This document shows, one piece after another, positions 46,444-64,000 of a stretch of 64,000 nt of DNA. Positions within the stretch are counted from its first letter, which is position 1. Every line of letters starts with the position of its first letter. Source of the stretch: Gordonia sp. SL306 (lineage in GTDB: Bacteria > Actinomycetota > Actinomycetes > Mycobacteriales > Mycobacteriaceae); the NCBI RefSeq assembly GCF_026625785.1, contig NZ_CP113063.1, positions 3,162,001 to 3,226,000 on the forward strand. Direction: 5' to 3'. The notes beneath the pieces were generated by a model. The model saw nothing but the letters and a program-made list of their open reading frames with translations. It searched no databases and was not told the origin of the DNA. The position numbers and the translations under genes were made by a program.

Positions 46444-46539
46444 GGAGGCAGGCTGGTCGTCATGTATACGGACACCGCTGCAGTTGTCGACGCTGTGGTT
46501 GTCACCGACGGCCGGGGCGCTAGCTAACGAGGGAGAACA

Positions 46540-49086
46540 ATGTTCGAACGGTTCACCGACCGCGCACGTCGTGTCGTCGTCCTGGCGCAAGAAGAAGCGC
46601 GGATGCTCAACCACAACTACATCGGCACCGAGCACATCCTCTTGGGCCTCATCCACGAGGGTGAAGGTGTCGCCGCCAAGGCACTCGAATCTCTCGGGAT
46701 CTCTCTTGAAGGTGTTCGCAGCCAGGTCGAGGAGATCATCGGCCAGGGGCAGCAGGCACCCTCCGGGCACATCCCGTTCACGCCGCGTGCCAAGAAGGTC
46801 CTGGAGCTCTCGCTGCGCGAGGCGCTGCAGCTCGGCCACAACTACATCGGCACCGAGCACATCCTCCTCGGCCTCATCCGCGAGGGCGAGGGCGTGGCCG
46901 CCCAGGTGCTGGTCAAGCTGGGTGCAGACCTCAACCGGGTCCGCCAGCAGGTCATCCAGCTGCTCTCGGGCTACCAGGGCAAGGAGCCACAGGAGGCCGG
47001 GACCGGCGGACGCAGCAGCGAGGCGGGTACACCGTCGACGTCGCTGGTTCTCGACCAGTTCGGCAGAAACCTGACCGCCGCGGCCGCCGAGGCCAAACTC
47101 GACCCGGTCATCGGGCGCGAGAAAGAGATCGAGCGGGTCATGCAGGTGCTGTCCCGCCGCACCAAGAACAACCCGGTGCTCATCGGTGAGCCCGGCGTCG
47201 GCAAGACCGCCGTCGTCGAGGGTCTCGCGCAGGCCATCGTCAACGGCCAGGTGCCGGAGACGCTCAAGGACAAGCAGCTCTACACCCTTGACCTCGGGTC
47301 GTTGGTTGCCGGCAGCCGCTACCGCGGTGACTTCGAGGAACGCCTGAAGAAGGTGCTCAAGGAGATCAACACCCGCGGTGACATCATCCTGTTCATCGAC
47401 GAGCTGCACACGCTGGTCGGCGCGGGTGCCGCCGAGGGCGCGATCGACGCCGCGTCGATCCTGAAGCCGAAGCTTGCCCGCGGTGAGCTCCAGACCATCG
47501 GTGCCACCACCCTCGACGAGTACCGCAAGTACATCGAGAAGGACGCCGCCCTCGAGCGCCGGTTCCAGCCGGTGCAGGTCGGCGAACCGTCGGTCGAGCA
47601 CACGATCGAGATCCTGAAGGGTCTGCGTGACCGCTACGAGAGCCACCACCGGGTGTCCATCACCGACGGTGCGCTCGTCGCGGCGGCGACGCTGGCCGAC
47701 CGCTACATCAACGACCGGTTCCTGCCGGACAAGGCGATCGACCTCATCGACGAGGCGGGCGCGCGCATGCGCATCCGCCGGATGACCGCGCCGCCAGATC
47801 TCCGCGAGTTCGACGAGCGCATCGCCGACGCCCGCAAGGAGAAGGAATCCGCGATCGACGCGCAGGACTTCGAGAAGGCCGCCAATCTCCGCGACAAGGA
47901 GAAGCAGCTGGTCGCCGAGCGGGCCGAGCGTGAAAAGCAATGGCGCAGCGGCGACATGGACGTCGTGGCGGAGGTCGACGACGAGCAGATCGCCGAGGTC
48001 CTGGGCAACTGGACCGGCATCCCGGTGTTCAAGCTCACCGAGGAGGAGACCACCCGTCTGCTTCGCATGGAGGACGAGCTGCACAAGCGGATCATCGGCC
48101 AGGAGGACGCCGTCAAGGCGGTCTCCAAGGCGATCCGCCGTACTCGCGCCGGTCTGAAGGATCCGAAGCGTCCGTCCGGTTCGTTCATCTTCGCCGGCCC
48201 GTCCGGTGTGGGTAAGACCGAGCTGTCCAAGGCGCTGGCGAACTTCCTGTTCGGCGAGGACGACGCGCTCATCCAGATCGACATGGGTGAGTTCCACGAT
48301 CGCTTCACCGCATCGCGCCTGTTCGGTGCTCCTCCCGGCTACGTCGGGTACGAAGAGGGCGGCCAGCTCACCGAGAAGGTGCGCCGCAAGCCGTTCTCGG
48401 TGGTGCTGTTCGACGAGATCGAGAAGGCGCACTCGGAGATCTACAACACGCTGCTTCAGGTGTTGGAGGACGGGCGTCTGACCGACGGTCAGGGACGCAC
48501 GGTCGACTTCAAGAACACCGTGCTGATCTTCACCTCGAACCTCGGTACCAGCGACATCTCCAAGGCGGTCGGCCTCGGCTTTACGCAGGGCAACAGCGAC
48601 GGCTCGCAGTACGAGCGGATGAAGCAGAAGGTCAACGACGAGCTGAAGAAGCACTTCCGCCCCGAGTTCCTCAACCGTATCGACGACGTCATCGTCTTCC
48701 ACCAGTTGACGCGCGACGAGATCATCCAGATGGTCGACCTGATGATCAACCGTGTGGAGACACAGTTGAAGAACAAGGACATGGCGATCGAGCTCACCGA
48801 CCAGGCCAAGGCCCTGTTGGCCAAGCGTGGCTTCGATCCGGTGCTCGGTGCCCGGCCGCTGCGTCGGACCATCCAGCGTGAGATCGAGGACCAGCTCTCG
48901 GAGAAGATCCTGTTCAACGAGATCGGCGCAGGCCAGATCATCCTGGTCGACGTCGAGGGCTGGGACGGCGAAGACGACGGCGAGGACGCCAAATTCGTGT
49001 TCACCGGCTCCGAGAAGCCGCGCGAGGTGCCCGACGCACCTGCCGAGCTGACCAAGGCCGGCGACAGCAACGGCGAGTCGAACTAG
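46540..49086 (+). CDS. clpC: ATP-dependent Clp protease ATP-binding subunit ClpC
   Basis: An 848-residue Hsp100 unfoldase. The N-domain holds two Clp repeats ([20 protein letters not shown], residues 1-145). The first AAA+ module has [16 protein letters not shown] (~217), the UVR middle region ends [20 protein letters not shown] (~450), and the second AAA+ module has [19 protein letters not shown] (~553) and [19 protein letters not shown]. It feeds substrates to the ClpP1P2 protease in the cytosol. SD GAGGGAGA precedes ATG 46540. It is monocistronic, with a strong terminator after the stop. Confidence 0.98.
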
Positions 49087-59106: not shown

Positions 59107-59583
59107 TCACATCCATACCGCCCGCGAGCCGCTGTCGCCGATTCTGTAGATCGTGATCACCGATCCTATTGCCACGACGAGCGTCGCGGCGCCGAGCAAC
59201 CAATCGACGGCCCGGCCCGCTCGCCCGAACACAGGAAAACGGTCGGACACGAACGCTCTCACGCGTTCGTCGTGCGCTGCCCACCAGAGAAATGTCAACG
59301 CGAAAAGCGGTCCAGCCCAGTAGATCATCTGCTCGCCCAGTTGGGTGTGGTGCTCCACGGCTTCGGTGTGCGGTACCCGTGCCTCCAGCGCTTCACCCGC
59401 ACTGGTGGCCAGCGGCACCGCGATCAGGGCGGCCAGCGCGGCCAGTGGGACAAGGAATTCCAGACGCCGGCGTGCGGCGGGCCAGAGCACTGCGAGTACC
59501 GCCATCAGCGAAGCCAATGGGACGAGCACGACAACCGCATGAACGAGTAACGGGTGCGCGGGCAGTCCATTGACCGTGTTCAC
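59107..59583 (-). CDS. DUF2231 membrane protein
   Basis: A 158-residue protein with four hydrophobic helices. The start NTVNGLPAHPLLVHAVVVLV, with a conserved HPLLVH, and the third-helix region HHTQLGEQMIYWAGPLFALT are typical of the DUF2231 family. GTG 59583 is chosen; the frame is open further upstream. The function is unknown; a haem or redox role has been proposed for related membrane proteins, but nothing here proves it. Confidence 0.82.
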   Translation of the reverse strand: MNTVNGLPAHPLLVHAVVVLVPLASLMAVLAVLWPAARRRLEFLVPLAALAALIAVPLATSAGEALEARVPHTEAVEHHTQLGEQMIYWAGPLFALTFLWWAAHDERVRAFVSDRFPVFGRAGRAVDWLLGAATLVVAIGSVITIYRIGDSGSRAVWM

Positions 59584-59645: not shown

Positions 59646-60734
59646 TCAGGCCCCCAGCGCCCGTGCGAACATGGGCCACGACTCGTGCATCTGGTCCTGC
59701 CAGTAGCCCCACGAATGTGTGCCGGTGGCAGGGAACCTCACCGTTGCCGGGATATGGAGCTGGCTCAACCGCCGGACGAGGGCGTCGGTGCAGTATCGTG
59801 CTGCCGCCTCGTCAACTCCTCCGGCGATCACCTGCTGAGCGAGTCGACCGCCGTTCCCGGCGATTCTGCGGTCGGCGAGGTTGTCGTGACCACCGGGGAG
59901 TCCGCTTGCCGCGCTTATCCACAGCGCTGGGGTACGCCGAGCCAGCTTGTGCGCGTTGATGACCGGGTCCTGTGCCGCCCACTCGGGGTCGCCCGGCGGC
60001 CCGTACATGTTGCTGGCATCGGCGCCGTCGGGGAGCCCGGTGACGATGCGGACGATGAGTTGTCCTTGTACAGAGGCCGTCTCGGCACACCCCGAGTACG
60101 CGCCGACGGCACGGTACATTCCGGGATGGTTCTCGGCGATCCGCACGACAGATGTACCCGACATCGAGATCCCCGCGATCCCGCGCGAACGACCGGGACC
60201 TGGTCCCCCATGGGCGCGCTCGAATGCCGACGGCAGTTCCGACGTCACAAATGTCTCCCACCGGAGCGGTCGGGTGGTCTTGACCCCGAACCGGAAGTTC
60301 GCAGCCGGATCCACTCTCTGCCAGTCGGCGTAGTAGGTCGCCGCACCACCGATCGGCGTCACGGTCCACACGTTCTTTGAACCGTAGAAAGCATTGGCAT
60401 CGGTGGCGTGTGTCCAGTCGTCGCCGCGTTCGCCTCCGCTCGAGCCGTTCAGAAGGTACATGACCGGTGCGCCGGGGTTCCGATTCGCCGGCGCCTGCAC
60501 CAACACGGGCACTTGTGTGGCCATGGATCGGGACCACACCGATGCGACGAGGTTTCTCGGCGAGAGCCTGGTCTCACGATAAGGGTGGGCAGCGCTCGCA
60601 TGTGCGTAGCTGATGCCGTCCAACGTGTCCGCCGTAGCGGCGGGTGATCCGGTGAGTGTCATCCCGACGGCGGCCGCCACCGACAGGACCAGCACGCTGA
60701 CCCTGGCAAAGAGTGCGTACCTCGTGCGCTGCAT
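59646..60734 (-). CDS. Secreted antigen 85-like esterase/mycolyltransferase
   Basis: A 362-residue secreted alpha/beta hydrolase: signal peptide ALFARVSVLVLSVAAAVGMT with cleavage near PAATADT, then APVMYLLNGSSGGERGDDWT, the nucleophile elbow IAGISMSGTSVVRIAENHPG and a C-terminal catalytic His in FPATGTHSWGYWQDQMHESW. The ending GTHSWGYWQDQM is that of the corynomycolyl/mycolyl-transferase (Ag85) family. Such proteins attach mycolates to trehalose or arabinogalactan, which fits a mycolic-acid-containing host. A non-mycolyl esterase cannot be excluded. Confidence 0.9.
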   Translation of the reverse strand: MQRTRYALFARVSVLVLSVAAAVGMTLTGSPAATADTLDGISYAHASAAHPYRETRLSPRNLVASVWSRSMATQVPVLVQAPANRNPGAPVMYLLNGSSGGERGDDWTHATDANAFYGSKNVWTVTPIGGAATYYADWQRVDPAANFRFGVKTTRPLRWETFVTSELPSAFERAHGGPGPGRSRGIAGISMSGTSVVRIAENHPGMYRAVGAYSGCAETASVQGQLIVRIVTGLPDGADASNMYGPPGDPEWAAQDPVINAHKLARRTPALWISAASGLPGGHDNLADRRIAGNGGRLAQQVIAGGVDEAAARYCTDALVRRLSQLHIPATVRFPATGTHSWGYWQDQMHESWPMFARALGA

Positions 60735-60774: not shown

Positions 60775-61029
60775 TCAGCGAGCTGCTCCGCTCGGTCGAA
60801 TGGTGCCACGGCCGAGTTTGTGCGATCCGTCGCACATCGGCGTGATGGAACTGCGTCCACACCGACACAATGCAACGGTCGAACGTCGGACCGGGATTGG
60901 GCTACCGTCGGAACGGCAGAGATCTATCGGTCCTCGCACAAGCAGGGGTCCGTCGTCGCAGACCACGATCATCGTCGGTGCGATGCGCCTGCCTCGGTCG
61001 TCGTCATCATCTTGGAGGCTGGAGTCCAT
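60775..61029 (-). CDS. CDGSH iron-sulfur protein
   Basis: An 84-residue protein with one CDGSH domain: VALCRCGRSSITPMCDGSHK gives the C-x-C-...-C-x3-H ligands for a [2Fe-2S] cluster (residues ~54-70). The N-terminal part, VVCDDGPLLVRGPIDLCRSD, is the typical bacterial MitoNEET-like extension. An SD (AAGGTGAGG) is ~5 nt before ATG 61029. It is divergent from a haem-oxygenase-like diiron protein with about 70 bp between starts, so the two probably share a regulatory region. Confidence 0.9.
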   Translation of the reverse strand: MDSSLQDDDDDRGRRIAPTMIVVCDDGPLLVRGPIDLCRSDGSPIPVRRSTVALCRCGRSSITPMCDGSHKLGRGTIRPSGAAR

Positions 61030-61098
61030 TTGTCCTCACCTTCCGCACACCCGATCGACAGCAGTGGCGTCGACGCTACCAGCGCAGGTCAGCCGCGA

Positions 61099-62112
61099 AT
61101 GCCGCTTCCAGCGCCACGTGGGCCGTTGAGCCGCACCGTCGTATCGACCCTCACCGGCCATCACACCGGACTCGATCAACTGCGTGACCGCATGGTTGCG
61201 GATCTGCCTACGGGCAACGACTTTCTGCTCGACGAAGACATCGCGATCACGCTGACAATGCTCTACGAGCTGCACCTCAGGGGAATCGTGGGAGTGTCCG
61301 ACGACTGGGAGTGGAACGCGGACCTGCTGGCTGCGCGCGCGGTTCTCGAAGCCCGCTTTCTCGAGGCCATCGACGACCTGGTCGGAATGGTGCACCCGCC
61401 GGCCGACCTGGAAGGTGCTCTGTGGGCGGTCGGTAATGCGGATGACGGTCCGCCTCTGTCGTCGTTCATGGCGCGAACGGCCGAATGCGATCACTTTCGC
61501 GAATTGATCGTTCACCGCTCGTTCCATCAGCTTCGCGAGGCCGACGTGCACACGATGGCAATACCGCGCTTGCACGGCGCCGCGAAGGCAGGTCTTGTCG
61601 AAGTCCAGATGGACGAGTACGGCGGTGGATCCGTCGACAGAATGCACGCGACTCTCTACGCGCGGATGATGCGTGCACTGGGGCTGAACAGCGACTATGC
61701 ACACTATATCGACGTGATTCCGGCGTCGACGCTGGCCGGGGTGAATGCGTTGTCGATGTTCGGCGTGCATCGCTCTCTGAGGTATGAGCTGATCGGTCAC
61801 CTGTGCACAGTCGAGATGACCTCGGCGCTACCGAGCAGGAAATACAGTCGAGGGCTTGCCAGGCTCGGGTTCGGCCCCGATGCGCGACTCTTCTTCGATG
61901 AACACGTGGAGGCGGATTCGGTTCACGAGCAGCTCATTGTTCGCGAGGTGGCTGGTCGTCTGGCGGCCGGCGATCCCGCTGCCGGGACAGCGTTGATCCG
62001 AGGTGCCCGTGCCTGCGCCGCTTTCGACGTACTGGCCGCAGAGCATGTCTGGCAATGCTGGGAGTCTGCCGAGACGTCACTGCTGCGTTCACTCGAGGGC
62101 GTTACATCGTGA
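61099..62112 (+). CDS. Haem-oxygenase-like diiron protein (iron-containing redox enzyme family)
   Basis: A 337-residue all-helical protein of the haem-oxygenase-like diiron oxidase (HDO) fold. The start PLPAPRGPLSRTVVSTLT fits the family. Likely iron ligands are in GLVEVQMDEYGGGSVDRMHA (Glu/Glu/His) and RLFFDEHVEADSVHEQLIVR (Glu/His, Asp, His). HDOs use O2 in unusual oxidations in natural-product pathways. ATG 61099 is preferred; a TTG at 61030 would butt against the divergent CDGSH start and leave no promoter. A HemK-like methyltransferase gene follows 144 bp downstream. Confidence 0.82.
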   Translation: MPLPAPRGPLSRTVVSTLTGHHTGLDQLRDRMVADLPTGNDFLLDEDIAITLTMLYELHLRGIVGVSDDWEWNADLLAARAVLEARFLEAIDDLVGMVHPPADLEGALWAVGNADDGPPLSSFMARTAECDHFRELIVHRSFHQLREADVHTMAIPRLHGAAKAGLVEVQMDEYGGGSVDRMHATLYARMMRALGLNSDYAHYIDVIPASTLAGVNALSMFGVHRSLRYELIGHLCTVEMTSALPSRKYSRGLARLGFGPDARLFFDEHVEADSVHEQLIVREVAGRLAAGDPAAGTALIRGARACAAFDVLAAEHVWQCWESAETSLLRSLEGVTS

Positions 62113-62256
62113 GTTTCAGCCGAATTTAAGTGTCTGGGTATTAGCGTCGATGAGATGTCCACAGTCAATGAGGAGAGTAGCCACCGGTGTGCGGCGGGAG
62201 GGTTGTGAACTGCATGATGAATGCTGACCGGGCCGTAATGCGTGGGCGCGGAGCAC

Positions 62257-62976
62257 ATGGGTGACGCGATCCTTGACCGGCGGACCCACGGCATCCTCAG
62301 TGCACTCCCCGGTCCCGTGCCTCAGATCGCGGAGCATCCCGAGGTGTACCGACCGTCGGTCGACTCCGCGCTGCTGTGTCTTGGGCTCGCCGAGGAGTTC
62401 CGGGTACGTCCGTCCCGATCGTCGTCGGCCACCGAACTCTGTGCGGGCGCAGGTCTAGCGAGCCTCTATGCGACCCGCTGGGCGTCCACGGTCATCGCCG
62501 TCGATCGGAACCCGGCAGCGATTGCGGTGATGCGGTCGAACGCTCGGGTGAACGGCGTCGCGCTGGATCTCCGCTGTGCCGATGCGAACGACCTGGACCG
62601 TTCCTTCGCGGCCGACGTGGTGTTCGCGAACCCGCCCTATGTGCCGACTTCTCCCGATGCGACTCGATCCGCACTCGGGTATGCCTGCAACGGTGGTGAA
62701 CTCGGCCGCGATGTGATCGACTCGATCATCGAGCGCGCACCGATTCTCGTTCGCCCCGGTGGGACCTTGCTTCTGGTCCAGTCGACGATCAGCGGTGCCG
62801 AGCAGACCATGGCCGCACTGTCTGCTCTGGGCTTTCAGGTATCGGTGTCACACACGCGGACAATACCTTTCGGGCCGGTCATGCTGGGGCGTGCGGTGTG
62901 GATGGAAGAGCGAGGGCTGATCGCACCCGGGCAGCGATGGGAGCAGCTCGTGGTGATCCGAGCACGTCGACGGTGA
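62257..62976 (+). CDS. HemK/PrmC-like class I methyltransferase
   Basis: About 239 residues. SAM motif I is ATELCAGAGLASLYATRWAS, with AVDRNPAAIAVMRSNARVNG as motif II, and the catalytic NPPY appears in VVFANPPYVPTSPD. NPPY and the organisation fit HemK2/Mtq2-like N5-glutamine methyltransferases, which modify GGQ motifs, although other substrates occur. GTG 62242 or ATG 62257 may be the start; neither has a good SD spacing. The stop overlaps the NRPS start (GTGA). Confidence 0.82.
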   Translation: MGDAILDRRTHGILSALPGPVPQIAEHPEVYRPSVDSALLCLGLAEEFRVRPSRSSSATELCAGAGLASLYATRWASTVIAVDRNPAAIAVMRSNARVNGVALDLRCADANDLDRSFAADVVFANPPYVPTSPDATRSALGYACNGGELGRDVIDSIIERAPILVRPGGTLLLVQSTISGAEQTMAALSALGFQVSVSHTRTIPFGPVMLGRAVWMEERGLIAPGQRWEQLVVIRARRR

Positions 62977-64000
62977 AGCCCGTGTCTACATCCAGGATGA
63001 TTCCGATGAATCGGGCACAGTCAGCTCTCTGGTACGCCCAGCAGGCTCTGGGGGACGTCCCACTTGCAGTGGCGCACTACATCGAGTTGGCGGGCGACGT
63101 CGACGTCGACACGTTGTGTTCGGCAGGTTCGCAGGCGGCGGTCGAGCTCGGTATTGCTTCGTCTCGGGTGATCACCGGGGCGGAGGGTGAGCCCCGACTT
63201 GTGATCGGGGCGGGGTCGCCCGACGCCGTACCGCGGATGTCCGCGAGTTCCGTCGCAGACGCGCTCCGACAGATGGAGGAAGCTGCGGCGAGTCCGCTTC
63301 CGCTCGACGGCCCGCTCACCGAGTCGATGGTGATCGAGGCCGACGGGCGGTGGTTCTTCTATCTCCGTGCCCACCATCTCGTGATCGACGGGTACGGTGC
63401 CGCAGCATTGCTGTCCCGGACTGCCGAGTTGTACCGGCGCGCGGTCAGGGCCGAGACGGACGCAGACGGCCCCGCCCCGCAGTCGCCGGAGGTGATCGTG
63501 GATTATGAGCAGAAGTATCGCTCGTCGTCGCGTCATGGGCAGGATGGGCAATACTGGTTCGAGGAGCTTACCAAGCGTCCGGAACCGTTGTGGCTGAACG
63601 GATCACCGGCGGACCCGGTTGTCTCACCGGTCCTCTCCGGCATCGACATCGAGGCGTCGATAGCGGCCGGAATCGAGGAATGTGCGCGGACTCACCGTAC
63701 GGCCGTTGCGGCCATCTGGATTGCGGGTATCTGCCTTTACCTCTCGCGTGCGCGTGACCGTGCCGATATCCCGTTGCTCATCGCCAGCTCCGGGCGTACG
63801 ACAGCGAGGCTGCGAGCGGCCGCTGGATGCATGTCGAATCTGCTTCCGGTCGCGGTTCAGGTGAACACGGGCGCCTGCGTCGCGGACTGGATCGGTGAGG
63901 TGTCGGCAGTGCTCTCAGAGATGTTGCGGCACCAGCAATTTCGTGTAGAAGAGATGAGACGCGACCGTGACCCGGGGATGTCCTCGCCGTTGCACGACGC
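62973..64000 (+). CDS. Non-ribosomal peptide synthetase, condensation domain (partial)
   Basis: The frame is open from GTG 62973 to the right edge (342 codons, no stop). The start reads NRAQSALWYAQQALGDVPLA, the entry pattern of LCL-type condensation domains; the catalytic motif is LRAHHLVIDGYGAAALL (HHxxxDG), and VIVDYEQKY, DGQYWFEELTKRPEPLWL and GCMSNLLPVAVQVNTG follow as in condensation domains. Because an NRPS begins with condensation and no adenylation domain is in view, its product is unknown. It is coupled to the methyltransferase gene by a 4-nt overlap. An in-frame ATG at 62997 or 63006 is another possible start. Confidence 0.9.
   Translation, partial: MKPVSTSRMIPMNRAQSALWYAQQALGDVPLAVAHYIELAGDVDVDTLCSAGSQAAVELGIASSRVITGAEGEPRLVIGAGSPDAVPRMSASSVADALRQMEEAAASPLPLDGPLTESMVIEADGRWFFYLRAHHLVIDGYGAAALLSRTAELYRRAVRAETDADGPAPQSPEVIVDYEQKYRSSSRHGQDGQYWFEELTKRPEPLWLNGSPADPVVSPVLSGIDIEASIAAGIEECARTHRTAVAAIWIAGICLYLSRARDRADIPLLIASSGRTTARLRAAAGCMSNLLPVAVQVNTGACVADWIGEVSAVLSEMLRHQQFRVEEMRRDRDPGMSSPLHD

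What the first reader, a model, noticed from the sequence alone, without database searches (positions are those of the whole stretch)
60775..64000. CDGSH / haem-oxygenase-like diiron / HemK-like methyltransferase cluster leading into an NRPS
A [2Fe-2S] CDGSH protein is divergent from a diiron-oxidase-fold protein, followed by a methyltransferase that overlaps an NRPS gene by 4 nt. Haem-oxygenase-like diiron proteins make unusual N-oxidations, decarboxylations and C-C cleavages in natural product pathways. Seeing one in a row with a condensation-first NRPS suggests an undescribed biosynthetic cluster, with the CDGSH protein as a possible electron donor. The trio may, however, be a conserved redox module merely adjacent to the NRPS.
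Basis: partly seen in the sequence, partly recalled or inferred. Interest (0 to 1): 0.75.

Follow-up and report, generated by a model that had tools for sequence, protein, structure and literature searches.

The report
Diiron oxygenase cassette beside peptide synthetase
A bacterial gene set that pairs an oxygen-using iron enzyme with a small iron-sulphur protein, elsewhere apparently part of a stress response, here sits inside a small peptide-making gene cluster, which makes it testable where such iron enzymes get their electrons.

Summary
In detail: a CDGSH [2Fe-2S] gene divergent from a haem-oxygenase-like diiron (HDO) gene, then a HemK2/MTQ2-like methyltransferase overlapping (GTGA) a condensation-first NRPS, which is one 4.3-kb C-A-T-C gene.
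The trio alone is an old module: in the window's genus 51 of 51 HDO loci have a CDGSH domain within 4.5 kb, and 26 of 40 fetched HDO loci are trios without NRPS. The own genome has such a copy beside a sigma factor. SigF-type promoter motifs precede 21 of 27 such HDOs, but 0 of 14 HDOs of the window's clade.
Thirteen of those 14 lie beside a C-A-T-C NRPS, in three gene orders; in one genome CDGSH is fused in frame to the NRPS. Yet 13 of 26 genomes with this NRPS family lack the HDO there. An Ag85/Cmt1-like gene, also in the window, occurs in 17 of 59 genus genomes, each time next to this NRPS.
Best reading: an optional oxidation cassette, recruited from a stress module, tailors the product of an NRPS cluster; CDGSH is the HDO's probable electron donor. 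Nearest folds are N-oxygenases (HrmI, SznF, RohS). Product, reaction and electron transfer are untested.

The parts
59646..60734 (-). Ag85/Cmt1-type mycolyltransferase-like protein (PF00756) with a signal-peptide-like start; likely member of the cluster
   Evidence: Pfam; best solved relatives Cmt1 and antigen 85; at E 1e-90 in 17 of 59 genus genomes, each time within 2.3 kb of the C-A-T-C NRPS (coordinates)
59107..59583 (-). DUF2231-like membrane protein, possible member
   Evidence: Pfam match just below cut-off; relatives near the NRPS in several loci
60775..61029 (-). CDGSH [2Fe-2S] protein, divergent from the HDO; probable electron donor
   Evidence: PF09360; CDGSH domain within 4.5 kb in 51 of 51 genus HDO loci
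61099..62112 (+). haem-oxygenase-like diiron oxygenase (start may be GTG 61069)
   Evidence: PF14518; presumed ligands E147 E173 H183 H269 D273 H276 invariant in 20 of 20 and 32 of 32; model pLDDT 93.7, nearest folds HrmI, SznF, RohS
62242..62976 (+). HemK2/MTQ2-like methyltransferase (start may be ATG 62257)
   Evidence: TIGR00537 above cut-off; NPPYVP in 15 of 15 aligned
62973..64000 (+). NRPS, N-terminal part; the gene continues outside the window to window-equivalent 67292: condensation, adenylation, carrier, condensation
   Evidence: Pfam; motifs; adenylation code DTVLVGACSK

Best explanation
The genes are one end of a small NRPS cluster found so far only in this actinobacterial genus. 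The core is a C-A-T-C NRPS (adenylation code D[TS]V[LFI][VI]GACSK), often with a mycolyltransferase-like protein. The HDO-CDGSH pair, here with a methyltransferase, is an optional oxidation cassette of that cluster, taken from an older stress-type module and without its stress promoter. Likely working: the NRPS loads one amino acid, and its two condensation domains join it to an acyl or peptidyl donor and to a last acceptor; the HDO oxidises the amino acid or the carrier-bound intermediate, most likely at a nitrogen; CDGSH returns the HDO's iron pair to the ferrous state between turnovers; the methyltransferase methylates a planar nitrogen or the new oxygen; the mycolyltransferase-like protein may attach the exported product to the envelope. 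Shown: gene content, conservation, gene overlaps, intact motifs, predicted fold, the fusion frame. Inferred: electron transfer, reaction, order of steps, product.
For: HDO, MT and NRPS follow each other on one strand, CDGSH divergent, in 7 genomes (G000, G032, G081, G071, G082, G077, G069); 4-base overlaps at both junctions in 3 of 6 relatives measured. HDO beside the NRPS in 8 of 12 class I and 5 of 14 class II genomes; an HDO of this clade in 13 of 26 NRPS genomes against 1 of 33 others, Fisher 2.7e-5, relatedness not corrected. Three gene orders. Fusion in G064: CDGSH, C, A, carrier and C in one 1509-residue frame, no ATG, GTG or TTG between the CDGSH motif and the C-domain start. Same kind of adenylation code in 17 of 17 NRPSs of the family that were read, in 0 of 14 other modules read. 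CDGSH beside the HDO in 51 of 51 genus loci and 75 of 80 named loci. SigF-type motif ahead of 21 of 27 canonical HDOs, 0 of 14 of the window's clade (13 of them beside an NRPS), 57 of 1640 random stretches. N-oxygenases fill Foldseek ranks 1-17 and the best PDB sequence matches. An HDO, PolF, needed an outside reductant (PMC12614342, passages).
Against: 13 of 26 NRPS genomes have no HDO beside the NRPS, and G072 has HDO, CDGSH and MT but no NRPS. Nine of 12 class I genomes lack the mycolyltransferase-like gene; the 5 class II loci with HDO lack the methyltransferase. No donor module or thioesterase among the genes scanned, window 56063 to L002 18117. Class I plus class II adenylation domains have a node support of only 0.704. 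CDGSH proteins also have cluster-transfer and sensing roles (recalled). No expression data.
Confidence: 0.6

Rival explanations
1. The HDO-CDGSH-MT set is only the old stress-type module lying by accident next to an NRPS; both copies act on a cell metabolite or protein.
For: 26 of 40 fetched HDO loci are trios without NRPS; of 80 named loci 75 have the CDGSH gene and only 3 a weak NRPS-like match; half of the NRPS genomes do without the HDO; of the Rhodococcus relatives in the same HDO clade, L114 lies near a sigma factor and has a SigF-type motif (1 of 5).
Against: Overlapping genes, three gene orders with the same partners, the CDGSH-NRPS fusion, no SigF-type motif in the NRPS-linked copies, and nine of 14 genomes keep a canonical copy as well.
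Confidence: 0.22
2. The cassette serves self-protection: HDO, CDGSH and MT modify the finished product or the cell's own target.
For: Optional presence (13 of 26) and a stress-type origin fit; HemK-type enzymes can modify proteins (recalled).
Against: MT-NRPS overlap and the CDGSH fusion point to making rather than shielding. PADLOC gave one partial match, of the MT to mad2 (138 residues, 51 bits).
Confidence: 0.1
3. CDGSH is not the electron donor but helps to assemble, or senses, the iron centre of the HDO.
For: HDO metal sites are labile (PMC13108848, section 4); CDGSH proteins can transfer clusters (recalled); no NAD(P)H reductase for CDGSH was noticed in the loci, though none was searched for.
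Against: The pairing fits a donor as well, and the HDO MboA has a dedicated flavin and Fe2S2 partner, MboB (PMC13185094, passages). Nothing here separates the two.
Confidence: 0.25

Closest known systems
HDO N-oxygenases HrmI, SznF and RohS
   Same: fold (Foldseek E 1e-9 to 5e-7), the presumed ligand pattern, biosynthetic setting
   Different: 17-24% identity over the Foldseek alignments; no CDGSH partner is mentioned for them in the passages read; substrate here unknown
MboA/MboB of mangotoxin biosynthesis (PMC13185094, passages)
   Same: HDO with a dedicated iron-sulphur redox partner in a peptide pathway
   Different: MboB is a flavin and Fe2S2 reductase using NADH; here the partner is a lone CDGSH domain, and the peptide machinery is an NRPS, not ATP-grasp ligases
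SigF-regulon genes of Mycobacterium smegmatis around MSMEG_1771, 'methylase, putative' (PMC4694148, passages)
   Same: stress-sigma promoter motif and a methylase gene, as at the canonical trio
   Different: whether the neighbours there are HDO and CDGSH was not tested; the window copy has no such motif
C-A-T-C NRPSs such as RapP/FkbP (recalled, no call)
   Same: one module with a second, terminal condensation domain
   Different: relation not tested
EntF and MxcG
   Same: best NCBIfam models for the NRPS N-terminal part
   Different: about 100 bits against cut-offs of 2300-2400; a terminal condensation domain ends the protein here

Membership tests
haem-oxygenase-like diiron oxygenase (HDO) | HDO helical fold | tested here: met
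   model pLDDT 93.7, pTM 0.91; HrmI, SznF, RohS, FlcD best, BesC and UndA weaker
haem-oxygenase-like diiron oxygenase (HDO) | three His and three carboxylate ligands | tested here: met
   E147, E173, H183, H269, D273, H276 invariant in 20 of 20 and 32 of 32; which residues are ligands was taken from the alignment with SznF and recall, not from a metal-bound model
haem-oxygenase-like diiron oxygenase (HDO) | binds two irons and activates O2 | not testable with these tools
   needs protein
HDO N-oxygenase (HrmI/SznF/RohS type) | oxygenates a nitrogen | not testable with these tools
   only nearest by fold and sequence
CDGSH iron-sulphur protein | PF09360 with three Cys and one His | tested here: met
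   64.1 bits, cut-off 29.5; motif in translation
HemK2/MTQ2-type methyltransferase | TIGR00537 above cut-off and NPPY motif | tested here: met
   103.6 against 87; NPPYVP in 15 of 15
HemK2/MTQ2-type methyltransferase | methylates glutamine of a release factor | not tested
   the other HemK/PrmC/PRK14968 models fall below their cut-offs
NRPS | C, A and carrier domains with catalytic motifs | tested here: met
NRPS | release by a thioesterase or reductase domain | tested here: not met
   the protein ends in a condensation domain; such NRPSs exist (recalled)
SigF-type stress regulon | GTTT/GGTT, 14-18 bases, GGG[TAC]A upstream | tested here: not met
   0 of 9 class I-clade and 0 of 5 class II HDOs, the window's included; 21 of 27 canonical HDOs
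antigen 85 / mycolyltransferase family | sequence relation to Cmt1 and Ag85 | tested here: met
   E 1e-47 and 7e-32; activity not testable

The most novel reading that the evidence does not exclude
A lone CDGSH [2Fe-2S] protein is the dedicated electron donor of a whole HDO lineage in actinobacteria, a second kind of HDO redox partner after MboB, and in this NRPS cluster the pair acts on the carrier-bound amino acid, the fused CDGSH-condensation protein of G064 bringing the electron source onto the assembly line itself.
Probability: 0.35. Interest if true: 0.8.

Novelty: new variant of a known kind. Interest (0 to 1): 0.6.

Why it matters
How HDOs are re-reduced in cells looks largely open: the passages read describe ascorbate, dithiothreitol or mediators in assays and say that MboA/MboB may be the first characterised dedicated pair (PMC12614342; PMC13185094). 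A small CDGSH protein paired with an HDO in 51 of 51 genus loci, and once fused to an NRPS, makes the question testable with two small proteins. It also links a stress-type module of unknown function, present in many actinobacteria, to specialised metabolism, and marks a cluster that joins an NRPS to a mycolyltransferase-like protein.

Tried and rejected
Siderophore reading (EntF/MxcG matches; PF00756 also holds enterobactin esterases, recalled): dropped, because the PF00756 protein is nearest to Cmt1/Ag85 and its NRPS code is not the serine code as I recall it. Defence reading: one partial PADLOC match, of the methyltransferase to mad2. RNA elements: no Rfam match at gathering score in the window. 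Naming the amino acid from the code: not done. Naming the organism: no call names it; Gordonia is my guess from the number and size of the genomes in the genus and from its mycolic-acid-type genes; the plasmid search gave Tsukamurella, Nocardia and others. The VIA-align second look was not available.

Limits of the counts. In some searches only the ten best first-look candidates per genome were scored, two per genome, at most 34; absence there is at the stated cut-offs, and class II was not searched for outside the genus. The nine class II NRPSs without HDO were not put into the adenylation-code count, and one background stretch (L193) was dropped because it lacked the YGPTE motif. The HDO tree used 131 of 134 sequences, those of at least 231 residues. 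The methyltransferase promoter count used 14 of the 27 canonical loci. Three weak NRPS-like matches near L136, L151 and L170 (23-27%) were not followed. Fifteen papers listed for Gordonia, NRPS and genome mining were not opened. L004 was fetched and not used; of L003 three frames were scanned without a match. A note of mine gave 0.958 as support of the class I + II adenylation clade; the tree gives 0.704 for that node and 0.958 for class I.
Full report
What is there. The window is bases 3162001-3226000 of a single-contig 5.36-Mb genome. At its right end lie a CDGSH gene (60775-61029, minus), an HDO gene (61069 or 61099 to 62112, plus), a HemK2/MTQ2-like methyltransferase gene (62242-62976) and an NRPS gene starting at 62973 with a GTGA overlap. 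Stretches beyond the window show that the NRPS is one gene of about 1430-1440 residues with domains C-A-T-C, two HHxxxDG motifs and the carrier motif. Downstream in L002 follow a mycothiol-type protein, WYL and TetR regulators and an MPAB-type oxygenase on mixed strands; L003 was scanned only in three frames and L004 not at all. To the left of the CDGSH gene is a PF00756 protein (59646-60734, minus), nearest among solved structures to Cmt1 and antigen 85.

The HDO. Six residues that I take for the iron ligands, from the alignment with SznF and recall, E147, E173, H183, H269, D273 and H276 counted from ATG 61099, are invariant in 20 of 20 aligned relatives and in 32 of 32 of a second set. An AlphaFold model (pLDDT 93.7) matches HrmI, SznF and RohS best: Foldseek ranks 1-17 are structures of these N-oxygenases, and the same proteins are the best sequence matches in the PDB. 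Nitrogen oxidation is therefore my first guess at the reaction; HDOs do many reactions (PMC13108848, section 4) and the guess is untested.

The trio without the NRPS. Of 61 genomes (own and 60 relatives) 36 have a relative of the HDO. Around these hits 40 loci of up to 20 kb were fetched: 26 (L049-L075 without L054) have HDO, CDGSH and methyltransferase and no match to the window's NRPS; 6 have HDO and CDGSH only; 4 have only the HDO; 4 have an NRPS. The window's own genome has a trio at 1799792 (L064), beside a sigma factor, a hemerythrin, a CsbD protein and an ATPase of the anti-sigma kind (27.2 bits, just under Pfam's cut-off of 27.4). Among 59 genus genomes 42 have an HDO. All 51 HDO loci have a CDGSH domain within 4.5 kb (match start to match start), and 51 of 53 CDGSH hits have an HDO; the other two lie together on one contig of G015. 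Of the best 80 named loci from other actinobacteria 75 have a CDGSH match in the fetched stretch, 11 a methyltransferase match and 3 a weak NRPS-like match; of the five without CDGSH four end within 2 kb of the HDO, and one, Arthrobacter sp. Soil782, is a true exception.

Stress control. A published SigF regulon of Mycobacterium smegmatis lists promoters of the form GTTT-N15/16-GGG(T/A/C)A, and among its genes a 'methylase' MSMEG_1771 (PMC4694148, passages). I looked for GTTT or GGTT, 14-18 bases, GGG[TAC]A in about 350 bases upstream: 21 of 27 canonical HDO genes (18 at 150 bases or less by the printed distances), 10 of 14 canonical methyltransferase genes, 0 of 9 class I-clade HDO genes (8 beside an NRPS, and G072), 0 of 5 class II HDO genes, and 57 of 1640 random stretches; of five Rhodococcus relatives one, L114. 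Many starts were match starts, not checked start codons.

The trio with the NRPS. The window's NRPS has relatives at 39-44% identity (88% in G032) in 12 of 59 genus genomes, own included (class I); a second set, about 30% identical to the window's, is in 14 of 59 (class II); no genome is in both lists. In a draw of 298 genomes of the order, two, both of the same genus and one of them the own genome, passed E 1e-190. These searches scored only the best candidates per genome (ten, ten and two). All 17 NRPSs of the family whose adenylation domain was read (12 class I, 5 of 14 class II) have the code D[TS]V[LFI][VI]GACSK; 14 other modules read do not. Class I adenylation domains form one clade (0.958); class I with class II has 0.704. 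HDO and CDGSH lie beside the NRPS in 8 of 12 class I and 5 of 14 class II genomes. The gene orders differ: CDGSH<- HDO-> MT-> NRPS-> in seven genomes; NRPS-> <-CDGSH HDO-> in five; and in G064 a CDGSH domain in the same frame as the NRPS, with the HDO divergent and the MT facing it. The G064 frame holds zf-CDGSH, condensation, AMP-binding, carrier and condensation domains, and no ATG, GTG or TTG stands between the CDGSH motif and the start of the condensation domain. Among 53 CDGSH hits it is the only one in a frame of that length (1539). Junctions: HDO-MT and MT-NRPS overlap by 4 bases in L097, L099 and L100; by 43 and 1 bases in L096; by 43 with a gap of 2 in L095; L038 has gaps of 129 and 20. 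In G069 the NRPS was called with 1044 residues, and the class II NRPS of G018 is in two frames. A gene for an MFS transporter of one kind lies near the NRPS in six class I and two class II loci of those tested, not in the window.

HDO tree. The 14 HDOs of class I and class II and five Rhodococcus HDOs form one clade (0.923; class I with Rhodococcus 0.974; class II alone 1.0), apart from the canonical clade of 28 plus two order-level sequences (1.0). The five Rhodococcus loci have CDGSH divergent from the HDO, two have the methyltransferase, none an NRPS match; in L114 a sigma factor lies near, in L116 stress-type genes by their translation only. The likely history is recruitment of a stress-type pair into the NRPS cluster. 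Nine of the fourteen genomes with an HDO of class I or II keep a canonical copy.

The mycolyltransferase-like gene. At E 1e-90 it is in 17 of 59 genus genomes: all 14 class II and 3 of 12 class I genomes, each time within 2.3 kb of the NRPS, and in 0 of the 33 others (Fisher 1.1e-8 without correction for relatedness). More distant members of its family exist elsewhere (for instance L056, 32%). It suggests that the NRPS product meets the mycolate envelope, in class II above all.

How it most likely works, and what is not known. I take the NRPS to load one amino acid, the HDO to oxidise it or the bound intermediate, the CDGSH protein to re-reduce the HDO, and the methyltransferase to methylate the product. 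The HDO PolF needs an outside reductant (PMC12614342, passages); the authors of the mangotoxin work write that MboA/MboB may be the first characterised dedicated HDO-redox partner pair (PMC13185094, passages); the main text of the review PMC13108848 (section 4 and passages) does not hold the word CDGSH. Library searches for CDGSH with 'heme oxygenase-like' and with 'iron-containing redox enzyme' gave no paper, with 'nonribosomal peptide synthetase' one, on bentgrass, and with 'diiron' seven, six listed, unrelated by title except one on AlkB loci, of which I saw one passage, a figure legend. Mycolyltransferase, NRPS and Gordonia together gave none. These are open-licence papers only, and 15 listed papers on Gordonia, NRPS and genome mining were not opened. 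Against the reading stand the optional presence of the cassette (13 of 26), the single fusion, G072 with HDO and MT but no NRPS, and the lack of any expression or chemical data.

Verdict. Observation confirmed, interpretation partly supported: a new variant of a known kind (HDO in an NRPS cluster) with an unusual likely redox partner that can be tested directly.

Noticed in passing
window 46529-49008 (ORF 46540-49086, +): The stretch is 89% identical to a Nocardia farcinica record and 88.8% to a Tsukamurella plasmid; in matched Arthrobacter and Acinetobacter plasmids the feature is a Clp ATPase or clpK heat-shock gene. It may be a mobile heat-resistance gene.
   Followed up: no
L064 (G000:C1:1790501-1810500): Second, canonical HDO-CDGSH-methyltransferase copy of the same genome, near a sigma factor, a hemerythrin and a CsbD gene, with SigF-type motifs before HDO and methyltransferase. 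Its function is unknown.
   Followed up: partly
L035 7956-9265: Curtobacterium plasmid pW21 carries an HDO gene that overlaps a CDGSH gene, so the pair can also be plasmid-borne.
   Followed up: no
L037 3881-7939: On a Kitasatospora plasmid the trio follows a YbdK-type carboxylate-amine ligase and a dimethylargininase gene, perhaps a hint at a guanidino substrate.
   Followed up: no
L206-L210: In these class II NRPS loci without HDO a 741-755-residue frame near the NRPS looks like a catalase-peroxidase, in three of them with a Fur-like frame (read from the translations only).
   Followed up: no
L098 8981-11010: G072 has the window-clade HDO, the methyltransferase and CDGSH but no NRPS beside them, perhaps after loss of the NRPS.
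   Followed up: no
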